The notes under the pieces: model-generated | What the model saw: only the letters and a program-made list of their open reading frames with translations | The model's database searches: none | What the model was told of the DNA's origin: nothing | Position numbers and translations under genes: made by a program | NCBI RefSeq assembly: GCF_000372465.1 | Contig: NZ_AQUZ01000017.1 | Location: 1 to 64,000 of the forward strand | Direction: 5' to 3' | DNA: 64,000 bases | From: Kribbella catacumbae DSM 19601 | GTDB lineage: Bacteria; Actinomycetota; Actinomycetes; Propionibacteriales; Kribbellaceae | Part shown: positions 1 to 5,194 of the stretch, piece after piece | Layout: every line of letters starts with the position of its first letter | Numbering within the stretch: position 1 is the stretch's first letter

Positions 1-930
1 CTCAAAGTCGTCCCCGCCTGCAGGGTTGCCACCTTGGGCGCCCGCCGGTCGTCTGTTCGCCTGGTTGGTGTCCGCTGGGTGCTCAAAGTCGTCCCGTACT
101 CCGCGTGGCTGCCGCCTTGGGCTGCCGCCAGTCACGCGTCCGCGCGATGGGTGTCCGCCGGGTGTCCAGTCGTCCCGTACCCCGCGCGGCTGCCACCTTG
201 GGCACCCGCCGGTCGCGATTCTCCACGATCCATGCCCACCGTGTGCCCAAGGTCGTCCCGGCACCCAGCACGGTCGCCGCCTTGAGCACCGGCAGAGTCA
301 CGCGTCCGCGCGGTTCGTGCCCGCTGGGTGCTCAAAGTCGGCCCGTACTCCGCGTGGCTGCCGCCTTGGGCGCCGGCCAGTCGCCCGTCCGCGCGATTGG
401 CGTCCGCCGGGTGTCCAATCGTCCCGTACCCCGCGCGGCTGCCACCTTGGGCACCCGCCGGTCACGGTTCTCCACGATCCATGCCCACCGCGTGCCCAAG
501 GTCGTCCCGGCACCCAGCACGGTCACCGCCTTGAGCACCGGCCAGTCGCCCGTCCGCGCGGTTCGTGCCCATTGGGTGCTCAAAGTCGGCCCGTACTCCG
601 CGTGGCTGCCGCCTTGGGCGCCGGCCAGTCGCCCGTCCGCGCGATTGGCGTCCGCCGGGTGTCCAGTCGTCCCGTACCCCGCGCGGCTGCCACCTTGGGC
701 ACCCGCCGGTCACGGTTCTCCACGATCCATGCCCACCGCGTGCCCAAGGTCGTCCCGGCACCCACACGGTTACCGCCTTGAGCACCGGCCAGTCGCCCGT
801 CCGCGCGGTTCGTGCCCATTGGGTGCTCAAAGTCGGCCCGTACTCCGCGTGGCTGCCGCCTTGGGCACCCGCCAGTCACGCGTCCGCGTGGTTGGTGTCC
901 GCCGGGTGCTCTAAGTCGGCCGGCGCCCAA
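1..930. repeat. Satellite-like tandem array with higher-order repeat structure
   Basis: The motif CTCAAAGTCG recurs at about 1, 82, 331, 579 and 826, giving a long period of 247-249 bp from 82 onward. Each long unit consists of three diverged ~82-bp monomers; in the 331-578 copy these are 331-413, 414-494 and 495-578. Monomers share a TGCCnCCTTGGGC core, and two of the three also share GCCCGTCCGCGCG. The same monomer type is far more alike between long units than the three types are to each other, which is a true higher-order repeat. The period is not a multiple of three, so the open frames across it are by-products and no protein is supported. The array is cut by the window edge and fades out before the end of pheA. 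Confidence 0.9.
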
Positions 931-964
931 GCGGGGGTGGTGGGTGTTCGCCAGGGCCGGGTGG

Positions 965-1864
965 TTAGTGGTGGGGGCGGAGGGCGCGGTTGGCGGCTGG
1001 TTCGGCTATTTGGGCTCGGAAGGGGTGGGCGGGGTAGACGCCCAGGAGGCGGACCTCGACGGAGAAGAAGGCGAGTTCCTCCAGCGCCAGGGCTACGTGC
1101 GGGTCCTCGGGGTGGCCCTCGATGTCGGCGTAGAACTGGGTGGCGAAGAACGAGCCGCCGAGTTGGTAGCTCTCCAGCTTGGTCATGTTGACGCCGTTGG
1201 TGGCGAAGCCGCCCATCGCCTTGTAGAGCGCGGCGGGGACGTTGCGGACCCGGTAGACGAAGCTCGTGATGGTCGGTCCCGAGCCCACTTCCGGTACGTG
1301 CGGCTCGCGGGACAGTACGAGGAAGCGGGTCGTGTTGTGGTGCTCGTCCTCGACATCCGACGCCAGGATCTCGAGCCCGTAGAGCCCGGCCGCGGCCACC
1401 GGGGACAGGGCGGCGACGGTCGGGTCGCTCAGCTCGGACACCTCGCGGGCCGAGCCGGCGGTGTCGTCGGCGACGACGGTCGACCAGCCGTGCTCGCGGA
1501 TGATCTTGCGGCACTGGCCGAGCGCGTGCACGTGGCTGCGGACGGTCTGGATCGACTCGATCGAGGAACCCGGTACCGCCATCAGCTGGAAGTGGATCGG
1601 CAGGAAGAACTCGCCGATGATGTGCAGCCCGGAGTCCGGCAGCAGGTGGTGGATGTCCGCCACCCGGCCGGCGATCGAGTTGTCCACCGGGATCATCGCC
1701 AGCCCGGCCAGGCCGGTACTGACCGCCTCGAGCGCGTCCTCGAACGTCGTACAGGGCAGCTGTTCGCGGTCCGGGAACATCTCGGTGCACGCCATCGCCG
1801 AGTTGGCGCCTGGCTCACCCTGATAAGCGATCGGTCCGTCCACGGTTTCCCAGCCTAGTGCCAC
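965..1864 (-). CDS. pheA: Prephenate dehydratase (PheA) with ACT domain
   Basis: Converts prephenate to phenylpyruvate, the committed cytosolic step of phenylalanine synthesis. The 299-residue product has a periplasmic-binding-like catalytic domain (about 12-185) with the family TRF motif at 179-181 inside HNTTRF, then an ACT regulatory domain (about 198-275) for feedback by phenylalanine. The ACT motif reads ESYQ at 231-234 rather than ESRP, as in the subfamily whose ACT domain contains TKLESY and ADIEGHP. There is no chorismate mutase domain, so it is monofunctional. The GTG at 1864 is the most upstream plausible start and leaves little leader; a GTG seven codons later is an alternative. 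Its 3' end runs into the repeat array. Confidence 0.93.
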   Translation of the reverse strand: MALGWETVDGPIAYQGEPGANSAMACTEMFPDREQLPCTTFEDALEAVSTGLAGLAMIPVDNSIAGRVADIHHLLPDSGLHIIGEFFLPIHFQLMAVPGSSIESIQTVRSHVHALGQCRKIIREHGWSTVVADDTAGSAREVSELSDPTVAALSPVAAAGLYGLEILASDVEDEHHNTTRFLVLSREPHVPEVGSGPTITSFVYRVRNVPAALYKAMGGFATNGVNMTKLESYQLGGSFFATQFYADIEGHPEDPHVALALEELAFFSVEVRLLGVYPAHPFRAQIAEPAANRALRPHH

Positions 1865-1882
1865 CCTGTCTCACCCCTTGAT

Positions 1883-2686
1883 TCAGGTGTCCGACTTGCG
1901 GACTTTCTTGGGGGCGCCGGTGGTCGCCCGGCCTTCCAGCTGCTTGGCCTTGGTGGCGTACATGTCGATGTACTCCTGGCCGGACAGCTCCATGATCTTG
2001 TACATGATCTCGTCGGTGACGGCCCGCAGGATCAGCCGGTCGCCCTCCATCCCCTCGTACCGGGAGAAATCCAGCGGCTCGCCGAACTTGATCGTCGGGG
2101 GCGCCAGCGAGGCGACCACCTTGCCGGGCGGCGCGACCACATCGGTACCGATCACCCCGCAGGGGATCACCGGGACCTTCGCCTCCAGCGCGAGCCGGGC
2201 GACGCCGGTCCTGCCCTTGTAGAGCTTGCCGTCGTGCGAGCGGGTGCCCTCGGGGTAGATGCCGAACAGCTCGCCGCGCTCCAGCACCTTCATGCCGGCC
2301 CGGATGGCGCCCTCGGAGGCGGAGCCGCCGGAGCGGTCGATCGGCACCTGGCCGGTGCCCTTGAAGAAGCCGCGCTGGAACCGGCCCTTGATCCCGGCGC
2401 CGGTGAAGTAGTCGGACTTGGCCACGAAGGTGACCCGGCGGCGGACCACCAGCGGCATGAAGATCCAGTCCGCGTAGGACAGGTGGTTGCTGGCGATGAT
2501 CGCCGGTCCGAGCGCCGGGATGTGCTCGGCGCCCTCCACCTTCGGACGGAAGATGCGTTTGACCGGCGGGCCGACCACGACGTTCTTCAGCACCCAGTAG
2601 ATGCCCTTGCCGTCGCCGTCACTGGCGTCGTCGACCGGGCGCTCCCGGTCTGGCTCGGGTCGCGGCGATTGCGCCGGTTCCGTCAT
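1883..2686 (-). CDS. 1-acyl-sn-glycerol-3-phosphate acyltransferase family (PlsC-like)
   Basis: Expected to acylate lysophosphatidic acid, or a related acceptor, at the inner face of the membrane. The 267-residue protein carries the acyltransferase block I NHLSYAD at 67-73 (NHx4D catalytic pair) and block III YPEGTRS at 144-150. About 26 polar residues precede the first conserved segment. The ATG at 2686 is chosen because AGGAAAGGA lies just upstream; an open frame continues far upstream but lacks family similarity there. It lies 18 bp upstream of pheA on the same strand, so co-transcription is possible. The exact acyl acceptor cannot be told from sequence. Confidence 0.9.
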   Translation of the reverse strand: MTEPAQSPRPEPDRERPVDDASDGDGKGIYWVLKNVVVGPPVKRIFRPKVEGAEHIPALGPAIIASNHLSYADWIFMPLVVRRRVTFVAKSDYFTGAGIKGRFQRGFFKGTGQVPIDRSGGSASEGAIRAGMKVLERGELFGIYPEGTRSHDGKLYKGRTGVARLALEAKVPVIPCGVIGTDVVAPPGKVVASLAPPTIKFGEPLDFSRYEGMEGDRLILRAVTDEIMYKIMELSGQEYIDMYATKAKQLEGRATTGAPKKVRKSDT

Positions 2687-2881
2687 CGATGTCCTTTCCT
2701 CACGTTTCCCCGAGCCCTCATGATGCCGTACGCTGCCCGCGCTCGCCGCAAGTCGCCGCGCCTGCCGTTGGGAAGTCGCCGCGCGGGAACGGCTGACAAG
2801 TTCGGCGCCAGCTTCGTAGGCTTCTGACGGCGGGCCTGACGCGGGCCGTACCGGGGCGCTGGAGCTGGGAGGGGCCGGGTT

Positions 2882-5194
2882 GTGAGGACTGGTTTCAGGA
2901 CGAGGCGGCTGACCGCCGTACTGGCTGTGGCGGCTGCCGCCTTCGCTGGGCTCCCACTGGCAGCCGCTGCGGTGAAGCAGCCTGCAGCAACGCCCGCCGC
3001 CGCACTGGCGCCCGCCGCGACGGTGGTGCCTCTGCAGGTGACCGGGCCGGCGGCCTCGCGATTCAACCTGGTGGTGATGGGTGACGGGTACACCGCCGCC
3101 GACCTGCCGAAGTTCCGCGAGCAGGTGGACAAGCACCTGAATGTCCTCTGGAGCATCGAGCCGTTCAAGTCGTACCGCAACTACGTCAACGTGTACGCCG
3201 TCGAGATCGCCTCACCCGAGAGCGGCGTCGACTGCGACCCCAGCCTGACCTCGCCCAAGGTCGACACCCCGCTGCAGATGGGCTTCTGGGGCGGTTGCAA
3301 CCCGGCATCGGTCCAGCGGCTGCTCACGGTCAGCTCGACCGCCGCCGCGCAGTACGCCGATCTGGTGCCCGGCACGACCGCTGCGAACCGGCAAATTCTT
3401 GCTATCGGCAACAGCGACACGTACGGCGGCGCCGGTGGTACCTACGCGACCGCCTCCGGTGGCAACGCGCTGTCGGCCCTGATCACGCCCCACGAGCTGG
3501 GACACTCGCTGGGTGGGCTCCAGGACGAGTACGACTACTACGCCCGCGGCGAGCGCGGAGCGGCGTACGGGGGTCCGGAGCCGAGCTCGATCCACCACAC
3601 GCTGCTGACCGAGCAGCAGATGCTCGACCAGCAGAAGAAGTGGTTCCGCTGGCTGGGGGAGCCGTCCGAGTCAGGCGGCCCGATCGCCCGCTACGAAGCC
3701 GGTATGTACGCCGGCTCCGGCGTCTGGCGCCCCAGCAAGCACTCGATGATGAAGACCCTCGGCTACTACTTCGACCAGGTCTCCCGCGAACGGATGACTC
3801 AGCGAATCTCCTCCCGAGCCTCCCTCTTCCAAGCCAGTACTCCGGCCGGCCCGGTCGCCCCCAACCAACTCGTCTGGCTCCAGACCCTGCACCCGGCCAG
3901 CCACGAGCTGACCGTCACGTGGACTCTCGACAACACGGTTCTGCCCACCAACAACAGCCGTGCGGTGGACCTGGGCTCCCTCAACCTGTCGCCCGGCCCT
4001 CACACGCTGACAGCCAAGATCGTCGACCCCACCTCCTTCGTCCGGGACCCGGCTGTCCGAGCTTCCTCGGCGCTGACGGCCACCCGCACCTGGACCGTCA
4101 GCCCGGCGCTCAGCGCCTCCCCGTCCGGTGACTCGCCTACCTTCACCACCTCGACCTCGACCGAGCACCCGGTCAATGCGGATGAGGTCGTCTACGTGGA
4201 GACCACGCAGCCCGACTCCGAGCAGCCAGCCGTCGAGTGGCGAGTCGACGGGATAATGGCGCCAAACCCGGGCAACGACCGCGACTTCCCGCTGGCTCCA
4301 CTCAACCTGACCGGCCGGCACACCCTCACCGCCACCGTCGGTACGAGCACGCTCACCTGGGAGATCGACGGCATCGAGCCGACCGTCGACTCCACCCTGT
4401 CCAAGCCGCTCCTCAAGATCACGAAACCCACCGGACCGGAGTACATCTACAACGACGCCTTCACGATGGGGCTGAAGGCGACGGACGACAGCGCCGGGTA
4501 CGTCGTACCGGAGTTCCGCGTGGACGGTGATGGCTGGTACAACTACTACGGCTGGCCGACCGACGCGGATGCTCCGTTCAAGTTCACCGCCGAGGGCACC
4601 GCGATCGACCAGCTCGTCTACGGCAAGCTCGGCGTACCGCGGGTCGTGCCCTGGGACGACGTGCCGTCGGGCTACGGCCGGCATCGGATCGAGTATCGCG
4701 CTATCGATGCCTCTGGCAACATCGCGACGCCGCAACGACTCGCCGTCACGTTGTTGCGTCCGGCACCTACTTGCACGAAGACCATCACCGGCACCCAAAA
4801 CGCCCCACTGACAGTGGTTTCCGGGGTCACCTGCCTGATCGGTGCCACCATCAACGGTCCGGTGATGGTTGCCCAAGGCGCCTCGTTGGTTGCCACCGAC
4901 ACCAAGATCGCCGGCCCGGTGAACGCTCGGAAAGCCGCCGATCTCCACCTCCTCCGTACTACGGTCAACGGTCCGGTCAGCCTCACCGACACCAGCCGAA
5001 GCGCAGTACTGGTCGGAGCCACCATCAGCGGGCCGGTCTCCGTCGTCGGCGCGAGTACGACGGAGCCCGTAGTACTCGCCGGCAACACGATCAACGGCGG
5101 GCTCGCTTGCTCCTCCAACACGGCCAAGCCCACCAACCTGCAGGCCCCGAACCACGTCTCCGGCCCCCGCGCCGGCCAATGCAGCGGCCTCTGA
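2882..5194 (+). CDS. Secreted M64-type (IgA peptidase-like) metallopeptidase
   Basis: A 770-residue exported zinc peptidase. A Sec-type signal peptide is visible (RTRR, then an alanine/leucine-rich core, residues about 6-30). The zinc site HELGHSLGGLQDEYD begins at residue 204, with the GLQDE extension typical of M64 peptidases, and NLVVMGDGYTAADLPKF near residue 62 is the usual N-terminal M64 block. The C-terminal half (about 320-770) is rich in Ser/Thr/Pro and beta structure and looks like Ig-like and stalk modules. Residues about 635-765 contain four or five repeats of an INGPV-type motif, suggesting a small beta-helix. The GTG start follows GGGAGGGG. It is divergent from plsC across 195 bp. 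Substrate unknown. Confidence 0.88.
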   Translation: MRTGFRTRRLTAVLAVAAAAFAGLPLAAAAVKQPAATPAAALAPAATVVPLQVTGPAASRFNLVVMGDGYTAADLPKFREQVDKHLNVLWSIEPFKSYRNYVNVYAVEIASPESGVDCDPSLTSPKVDTPLQMGFWGGCNPASVQRLLTVSSTAAAQYADLVPGTTAANRQILAIGNSDTYGGAGGTYATASGGNALSALITPHELGHSLGGLQDEYDYYARGERGAAYGGPEPSSIHHTLLTEQQMLDQQKKWFRWLGEPSESGGPIARYEAGMYAGSGVWRPSKHSMMKTLGYYFDQVSRERMTQRISSRASLFQASTPAGPVAPNQLVWLQTLHPASHELTVTWTLDNTVLPTNNSRAVDLGSLNLSPGPHTLTAKIVDPTSFVRDPAVRASSALTATRTWTVSPALSASPSGDSPTFTTSTSTEHPVNADEVVYVETTQPDSEQPAVEWRVDGIMAPNPGNDRDFPLAPLNLTGRHTLTATVGTSTLTWEIDGIEPTVDSTLSKPLLKITKPTGPEYIYNDAFTMGLKATDDSAGYVVPEFRVDGDGWYNYYGWPTDADAPFKFTAEGTAIDQLVYGKLGVPRVVPWDDVPSGYGRHRIEYRAIDASGNIATPQRLAVTLLRPAPTCTKTITGTQNAPLTVVSGVTCLIGATINGPVMVAQGASLVATDTKIAGPVNARKAADLHLLRTTVNGPVSLTDTSRSAVLVGATISGPVSVVGASTTEPVVLAGNTINGGLACSSNTAKPTNLQAPNHVSGPRAGQCSGL

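What the first reader, a model, noticed from the sequence alone, without database searches (positions are those of the whole stretch)
1..930. Bacterial satellite-like DNA with higher-order repeat organisation
Three diverged ~82-bp monomers (83, 81 and 84 bp in one unit) form a 247-249-bp unit that is itself tandemly repeated with few changes. This two-level structure resembles eukaryotic satellite DNA and implies recent unequal exchange of the 248-bp unit after older divergence of monomers. The period is out of frame, so it is not a repeat protein. It could be a structured RNA, a protein-binding array (partition or nucleoid organisation) or a recombination hotspot.
Basis: seen in the sequence. 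Interest (0 to 1): 0.7.

Follow-up and report, generated by a model that had tools for sequence, protein, structure and literature searches.

The report
Nuclease-linked DNA repeats in Kribbella
The repeat cluster is one of many scattered copies of a 59-base mirror-image DNA site that, in this group of soil bacteria, tends to go with a gene resembling an AbiEi DNA-binding antitoxin joined to a nuclease, which suggests a repeat-and-protein partnership that I did not find described.

Summary
The two-level array is real: 11 monomers every 81-84 bp, in 247-249-bp units. It is not a local satellite. Each monomer carries a ~59-bp inverted repeat, ACYTTGRGCAC-N37-GTGCYCAARGT. The Kribbella genome holds 88 strict copies (reversed control 0), nearly all examined ones intergenic, and the dyad has been copied without its flanks. 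In many Kribbella genomes such dyads lie on one or both sides of a gene for an AbiEi-like protein with a probable PD-(D/E)XK nuclease domain. Dyad sequence tracks protein subfamily (Mantel r=0.83, 18 loci). At least 5 strict dyads: 15 of 23 genomes with the gene, 1 of 13 without (p=9e-4; two with a contig break at the locus left out). M. tuberculosis AbiEi-family Rv2827c binds 23-13-23-bp inverted repeats, 59 bp in all. Y1/RAYT transposase: 1 of 38 genomes. Best reading: a REPIN/RAYT-like pair; the array is a cluster of the protein's sites amplified by unequal exchange. Binding, cutting and mobilisation are inferred. Against: one 20-copy genome without the gene; arm covariation in one species.

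The parts
1..919 (.). Tandem array, truncated by the contig start; 3.4 units of 247-249 bp, three dyads per unit
   Evidence: TRF; half-site register; contig start
31..89 (.). dyad 1 (59 bp)
   Evidence: half-sites at 34 and 78
114..172 (.). dyad 2 (degenerate)
   Evidence: half-sites at 117 and 161
195..253 (.). dyad 3
   Evidence: half-sites at 198 and 242
279..338 (.). dyad 4 (60 bp, one extra base)
   Evidence: half-sites at 282 and 327
363..421 (.). dyad 5 (not a strict-pattern match)
   Evidence: half-sites at 366 and 410
444..502 (.). dyad 6
   Evidence: half-sites at 447 and 491
528..586 (.). dyad 7
   Evidence: half-sites at 531 and 575
611..669 (.). dyad 8 (not a strict-pattern match)
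   Evidence: half-sites at 614 and 658
692..750 (.). dyad 9
   Evidence: half-sites at 695 and 739
775..833 (.). dyad 10
   Evidence: half-sites at 778 and 822
858..916 (.). dyad 11, last before pheA (one mismatch to the strict pattern)
   Evidence: half-sites at 861 and 905
965..1864 (-). pheA, prephenate dehydratase; its 3' end faces the array (context, not part of the system)
   Evidence: Pfam PF00800 E 6e-55; DNA homology to three relatives starts at window 961-966

Best explanation
The array is a cluster of recognition sites for an AbiEi-like DNA-binding protein that carries a probable PD-(D/E)XK nuclease domain, the two forming a REPIN/RAYT-like partnership. Each site is a ~59-bp dyad of two ~21-bp inverted half-sites with a 17-bp variable centre of near-fixed length. 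SHOWN in sequence: the dyad is dispersed (mostly intergenic) and tandemly amplified in Kribbella; many copies share centres but not flanks; dyads lie beside the AbiEi-like gene; dyad subtype tracks protein subfamily; high dyad number goes with presence of the gene, with exceptions. INFERRED: two monomers of the protein bind the two half-sites, as AbiEi-family proteins do at their operators; the flanking dyads serve as its operators and ends; breaks made or provoked by the nuclease domain at dyads promote copying of the unit to new intergenic sites and unequal exchange between neighbouring dyads. The last step would give tandem arrays and, here, a three-dyad 248-bp higher-order unit.
For: Own genome: 88 strict palindromes, 0 for the reversed pattern. 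In fetched Kribbella loci 179 candidates have spacer 37, 11 have 38, no other length more than 6. 81 own dyads: 66 centre-sharing pairs at different loci against a mean of 0.36 in shuffles (a few are the two ends of this array); flanks near background in many such pairs. Orthologous sites in different species (6 comparisons, 11 dyads): arms differ at 22/252 positions (12/120 in inner arms outside the search pattern), centres at 34/102. Gene in 23 of 38 Kribbella genomes; each of its 29 matched loci shows a dyad nearby in at least one scan, criteria differing; under one fixed scan 18 of 22 against 0/14, 5/13 and 12/58 in controls. At least 5 strict dyads: 15/23 with the gene, 1/13 without, p=9e-4; 13/13 where the gene's own dyads are of the strict type against 3/23, p=2.4e-7, a comparison that is partly circular, though 5 or more remain in each after the gene-side ones are taken off. 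Subtype TTGAGAAG: 6/6 against 4/32, p=7.6e-5. Ten gene-less genomes have GNAT directly beside the HesB-like gene, no dyad and 0-2 strict copies. Mantel r=0.83, p=1e-4, 18 loci. PADLOC AbiEi E down to 1.5e-7. Rv2827c binds 23-bp repeats 13 bp apart.
Against: G006 has 20 strict dyads but only a distant paralog of the gene, and its GNAT-HesB junction holds another frame. G031 (7) and G066 (5) have TTGAGAAG dyads without a gene of that subtype. G040 (5) and G054 (21) have strict dyads although the dyads beside their gene are of another subtype. The two genomes with 186 and 51 copies (G069, G049) show no close ortholog; their contigs stop about 50 bp before the HesB-like gene, where it would lie, so they decide nothing; counted as gene-less the association drops to p=0.007. 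In G105 and G090 the matching gene is only a fragment or in pieces. In K. sindirgiensis (G295) the arms do covary (122 of 150 paired, 102 expected, 0 of 500 shuffles), as a hairpin would predict. No target-site duplication (86 single dyads). Pfam AbiEi and DUF559 matches are below curated cut-offs; a PDB sequence profile search found nothing meaningful. Dyad and protein distances both partly follow species relatedness.
Confidence: 0.67

Rival explanations
1. A hairpin repeat working at RNA or single-stranded DNA level (terminator, mRNA-3'-end stabiliser, or a classical REPIN moved by a Y1 transposase).
For: Long complementary arms; dyads lie near gene 3' ends (46 convergent against 8 divergent of 115 fetched loci; window gaps of 70 bp or more: 6 and 9) and, in other species, 32 of 116 gene 3' ends facing a dyad are within 15 nt of it (5 of 94 in this genome); arm covariation in G295 (z 4.7) and paired changes at some orthologous sites; weak centre covariation in the pooled low-copy genomes (z 2.3, 26 of 2000 shuffles).
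Against: Over 11 genomes (131 dyads) arms pair no better than when shuffled (2074 against 2105.6; 995 of 1000 shuffles reach it), worse in G000 (z -3.1), and pooled low-copy arms are near expectation (z 0.8). Y1_Tnp in 1 of 38 Kribbella genomes. Rfam: none in window 1-4000.
Confidence: 0.17
2. A host regulon or chromosome-organising site bound by the AbiEi-like protein (or another factor), kept by selection at each place, with no mobility.
For: Conserved arms with diverged centres at orthologous sites; AbiEi proteins are autoregulators (PMC7319586 passages).
Against: Strict copy number from 0 to 186 among congeners; copies share centres without flanks; 8 divergent against 46 convergent loci is not a promoter-type distribution.
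Confidence: 0.25
3. Non-autonomous element (MITE) moved by an ordinary insertion-sequence transposase, with the AbiEi-like gene a bystander.
For: In G093 ten copies of a TTGAGAAG dyad sit inside a roughly 250-bp MITE with terminal inverted repeats, so dyads can hitchhike.
Against: Many centre-sharing copies in G000 share nothing beyond the dyad, though some share a flank; no target-site duplication; this does not explain dyads beside the gene or subtype matching.
Confidence: 0.1

Closest known systems
REPIN/RAYT systems (P. fluorescens SBW25; PMC3116915, passages seen)
   Same: Inverted pair of conserved ends with a less conserved spacer whose length matters; extragenic; ordered tandem clusters; clusters beside a gene that matches the repeat type
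   Different: PF01797 in only 1 of 38 Kribbella genomes; arms do not covary in G000 or overall; partner is an AbiEi-like protein with a probable nuclease domain
AbiEi-family operators (S. agalactiae AbiEi 23-3-23; M. tuberculosis Rv2827c 23-13-23; PMC7319586, passages seen)
   Same: Pairs of inverted repeats beside the gene; 23+13+23 = 59 bp (my sum) is the length of the Kribbella dyad; pairs can stand in tandem
   Different: Kribbella protein has an extra probable nuclease domain, and its dyads are also dispersed genome-wide and lie on the 3' side too; a toxin partner was not looked for; half-site sequences were not compared
DUF559/AbiEi fusion proteins of Actinobacteria (names of plasmid homologs)
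   Same: Probable same superfamily (weak AbiEi_4 and DUF559 hits)
   Different: The seven literature searches made showed no listing about dispersed cognate repeats
Eukaryotic higher-order satellite
   Same: Two-level tandem structure
   Different: At least 0.9 kb, intergenic, part of a dispersed dyad family

Membership tests
REPIN | two inverted conserved ends, variable centre, fixed length | tested here: met
   spacer 37 in 179 candidates, 38 in 11, others at most 6 each
REPIN | goes with a RAYT (Y1) transposase | tested here: not met
   PF01797 in 1 of 38 Kribbella genomes
REPIN | hairpin with compensatory changes | tested here: inconclusive
   absent overall and in G000, present in G295
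AbiEi operator | inverted repeats beside an AbiEi-family gene | tested here: met
   one fixed scan: 18 of 22 close orthologs, 17 of 18 distant homologs (16 of 17 distinct, L326 = L276) against 0 of 14, 5 of 13 and 12 of 58 in controls
AbiEi operator | bound by the AbiEi protein | not testable with these tools
   needs EMSA or DAP-seq
AbiEi protein | AbiEi domains by profile | tested here: inconclusive
   PADLOC AbiEi E 1.5e-7; Pfam below cut-off
PD-(D/E)XK nuclease | catalytic D...ExK/ExD motif | tested here: inconclusive
   D241, E252, D254, K258 invariant in 20 proteins (motif recalled); DUF559 hit weak (E 0.08; best 0.0032 in a distant homolog); fold not predicted
MITE | target-site duplication | tested here: not met
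   86 single dyads, border repeats of 2-8 bp no more frequent than in shuffles

The most novel reading that the evidence does not exclude
AbiEi-like nuclease proteins of Actinobacteria are each partnered with their own class of inverted-repeat sites, and in Kribbella such a site has become a mobile, amplifying element spread by its cognate nuclease through double-strand DNA recognition. This would be a second, independent invention of REPIN/RAYT-type repeat populations, able to build satellite-like arrays.
Probability: 0.38. Interest if true: 0.9.

Novelty: new variant of a known kind. Interest (0 to 1): 0.78.

Why it matters
Short dispersed repeats in bacteria are, as far as I know, mostly explained by RAYT transposases or left unexplained. 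A repeat family whose sequence tracks an AbiEi-like nuclease would give a role to a large class of 'AbiEi/DUF559' genes (26-58 first-look candidates, not confirmed homologs, per Kribbella genome), link toxin-antitoxin-type regulators to genome-wide repeat populations, and make the question 'what spreads this repeat' testable with two purified proteins and two dyad subtypes from the same genome.

Tried and rejected
Protein-coding repeat: open frames but negative codon log-odds. Rfam: no match in window 1-4000 up to E 1. RAYT: PF01797 in 1 of 38. Helical phasing of tandem spacing: 39 neighbour distances cluster at 72-74 (8) and 82-85 (23), without a preference for 10.5 bp. Target-site duplications: none above shuffles. 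The G093 'burst' was first taken as dyad transposition; it is a MITE carrying a dyad. Plasmids: no DNA match to the array; phages: no protein homolog. WITHDRAWN on checking: my note said that the contigs of G069 and G049 end in a half-site. They end about 50 bp upstream of the HesB-like gene, and the GGGCACGGG there is present in gene-less genomes too. The strict pattern under-counts: G034, G043, G009, G013, G027, G040, G054 and G081 have gene-side dyads of other sequence, of which only the TTGAGAAG type was counted genome-wide. Rows dropped: one search entered 20 loci and lost two (G002, G000) that had no dyad under its rule; the Fisher test for the strict type left out G069 and G049 (with them 13/13 against 5/25, p=1.6e-6); for TTGAGAAG, three single matches of 43-45 bp (G024, G087, G002) were not counted (with them 6/6 against 7/32, p=6e-4); from the orthologous pairs, L027/L244 (tandem clusters) was not used, nor were the pairs at the AbiEi-like gene's own locus. 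Literature searches: the listings, capped at 8-20 rows, showed nothing describing this repeat family; one search was too broad to be useful, and subscription papers are mostly not covered.

Full report
OBSERVATION. The first kilobase of the window holds one tandem array (76-908, period 248, 3.4 copies, 95% matches). The window starts at base 1 of contig C17 of a 9.6-Mb, 151-contig assembly. The genus is Kribbella: the best pheA matches among named loci are K. monticola (95% aa), K. steppae and K. sindirgiensis (a Nocardioidaceae MAG aligns next). In these three relatives DNA homology begins at window 961-966, just after pheA, and nothing matches the array in the 10 kb beyond. Contig C87 ends in 108 bp that match the array at 96%. 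It carries, before a subtilase and an SDR gene, a GNAT gene homologous to the one beside pheA in several relatives. C87 and C17 therefore most likely join through the array; this was not proved.

ANATOMY. Every monomer contains an inverted repeat with half-sites 44-45 bp apart. The pattern TTGRGCAC-N27..47-GTGCYCAA occurs 88 times in the genome and 0 times when reversed (only the first places were listed). In fetched Kribbella loci, allowing one mismatch per arm, the spacer is 37 in 179 cases and 38 in 11; no other length exceeds 6. Column conservation extends the dyad to about 59 bp, AC...GT. Of 193 dyads with spacers 35-39, 3 lie in a called gene and 33 near a stretch edge. By locus (115), contexts are 49 codirectional, 46 convergent, 8 divergent, 10 edge, 2 in gene; window gaps of 70 bp or more are 13, 6 and 9. 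The array region itself is not coding.

COPYING. Among 81 dyads of this genome, 66 pairs at different loci share at least 13 of 17 centre bases, against a mean of 0.36 and a maximum of 2 in 200 shuffles; a few of these pairs are the two ends of the pheA array (L001/L002). Pairs such as L116/L188 and L029/L115 have flank identity near the random level of 0.32, while others (L021/L029, L027 with L118) do share a flank. In the clear cases the unit copied is the dyad itself. No target-site duplication is seen at 86 single dyads. At orthologous sites of different species (6 comparisons of 11 dyads, one dyad used twice) arms differ at 22 of 252 positions and centres at 34 of 102. These sites were found because both carry the pattern, but inner arms, not part of the pattern, differ at only 12 of 120.

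GENUS. In 293 genomes of the order, 28 of 38 Kribbella have the strict pattern (1 to 186 matches); 14 of 255 other genomes have one match each, and the reversed control hits 7 of these 255. Some Kribbella matches are not true dyads: both in G002 are 52 bp long.

PARTNER GENE. Comparing flanks of dyads from different species showed one orthologous locus, in seven genomes, with dyads beside a fast-evolving gene (about 67-73% DNA identity in most pairs of species, against about 80-87% for neighbours): GNAT, dyads, gene, dyads, HesB-like, ABC, with dyads on one or both sides ('HesB-like' is my label, Pfam finds nothing in it). The gene encodes about 335 aa. PADLOC AbiEi profiles match at E down to 1.5e-7. 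Pfam AbiEi_1/AbiEi_4 (N-terminal half) and DUF559 (C-terminal) match below cut-off in a few members. In 20 aligned proteins D241, E252, D254 and K258 are invariant, which fits a PD-(D/E)XK nuclease of the DUF559/Vsr kind (motif recalled; fold not tested). Of nine plasmid records with a homolog, one is named 'type IV toxin-antitoxin system AbiEi family antitoxin', two 'DUF559', three 'hypothetical', and three have no named feature. In 117 genomes of the order, matches outside Kribbella stay at or below 172 bits, against 498-587 for intact Kribbella orthologs. In this genome the gene lies at C10:218-1207 with dyads after it; the matching upstream part, dyads and then GNAT, begins contig C20.

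PAIRING. A close ortholog (E<=1e-40) is in 23 of 38 Kribbella genomes. Each of its 29 matched loci shows a dyad nearby in at least one scan, in many on both sides, mostly 59 bp (G002 is a base shorter), but with criteria that differ; under one fixed scan it is 18 of 22. Four sequence subtypes appear: TTGRGCAC; TTGAGAAG; TTTGTGCAC (TTTGTGCTC in G013); and TCTTCCTGAGC in G027. Genomes with two paralogs (G084, G090, G054, G081) have a different subtype beside each. Protein and half-site distance correlate over 18 loci (Mantel r=0.83, p=1e-4), though shared ancestry contributes. Co-occurrence: at least 5 strict dyads in 15 of 23 genomes with any close ortholog against 1 of 13 without, leaving out G069 and G049 (p=9e-4), or against 3 of 15 counting them as gene-less (p=0.007). 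Where the gene's own dyads are of the strict type it is 13 of 13, against 2 of 10 with another subtype and 1 of 13 without gene (p=2.4e-7). That grouping uses gene-side dyads and is partly circular, but 5 to 87 remain after they are removed, and without G105 and G090, whose gene is in pieces, it is 11 of 11 (p=1.3e-6). For TTGAGAAG it is 6 of 6 against 4 of 32 (p=7.6e-5); two of the four, G031 and G066, have 7 and 5. Anchoring on the HesB-like gene in the 15 genomes without the close gene: ten have GNAT directly beside it with no dyad; G060 and G006 have longer gaps without dyads; G099 keeps one dyad; the contigs of G069 and G049 (186 and 51 copies) stop about 50 bp before it, so the gene cannot be ruled in or out there. 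G006 is a real exception (20 dyads, no close gene).

HAIRPIN OR DUPLEX SITE. If the arms worked as a hairpin they should covary. Over 11 genomes and 131 dyads, Watson-Crick pairs in the arms number 2074 against 2105.6 after shuffling within genomes. In G000 z=-3.1; pooled low-copy genomes z=0.8 for arms and 2.3 for centres; but in K. sindirgiensis (G295, 15 of its 18 dyads) z=+4.7. I read this as independent half-sites of a duplex-bound protein in the high-copy genomes, and leave open a hairpin role in some low-copy ones, where dyads are often close behind a stop codon.

COMPARISON WITH THE KNOWN. Passages of PMC3116915 describe REPINs as inverted conserved ends with a spacer whose length matters and common compensatory changes, with tandem clusters and RAYT genes beside matching clusters. 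The Kribbella system has the same architecture, but PF01797 is found in 1 of 38 genomes. Passages of PMC7319586 state that AbiEi binds two 23-bp inverted repeats 3 bp apart and that M. tuberculosis Rv2827c binds pairs 13 bp apart, two pairs in tandem; 23+13+23 equals 59 bp, the dyad length here. Distant homologs in Kribbella and other genera also have inverted repeats within 400 bp in 17 of 18 loci (16 of 17 distinct), against 0 of 14 pheA loci, 5 of 13 HesB-like loci and 12 of 58 window genes; most of those repeats have other lengths.

MECHANISM. Shown: dispersal, tandem amplification, pairing of dyad subtype with protein subtype. Inferred: binding by two monomers, autoregulation by the flanking dyads, nuclease action, and break-induced copying and unequal exchange as the cause of dispersal and of the 248-bp unit. 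The higher-order structure here needs no more than duplication of a three-dyad segment after its three monomers had diverged.

VERDICT. It is a local amplification of a dyad family widespread in the genus whose likely partner is an AbiEi-like nuclease; it works like REPIN/RAYT but fails that family's RAYT test.

Noticed in passing
L298, L328-L336 (unnamed Kribbella G093): A roughly 250-bp MITE with terminal inverted repeats carries a TTGAGAAG dyad at ten distant chromosomal sites: the dyad hitchhikes on a transposon-like element.
   Followed up: partly
L276-L286 and L321-L327: Distant AbiEi/DUF559-like genes in Kribbella and other genera of the order also have their own inverted repeats, of other sequence and mostly other length (43-82 bp), within 400 bp in 17 of 18 loci, 16 of 17 distinct.
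   Followed up: partly
L187:5978-9838 (contig C87 end): A subtilase and an SDR gene lie between the GNAT gene and the array, where some relatives (L161, L165, L167) have GNAT directly beside pheA: apparently a lineage-specific insertion at the array site.
   Followed up: partly
L202, L203, L204, L206 (starts of C20, C93 and C10; end of C8): Several contigs of this assembly start or stop in or near dyad clusters, so short-read assemblies may lose array length.
   Followed up: no
L360 (G006), gap 1795-2786: Where other species have the AbiEi-like gene, G006 has another open frame, yet the genome keeps 20 strict dyads: possibly repeats outliving their partner.
   Followed up: partly
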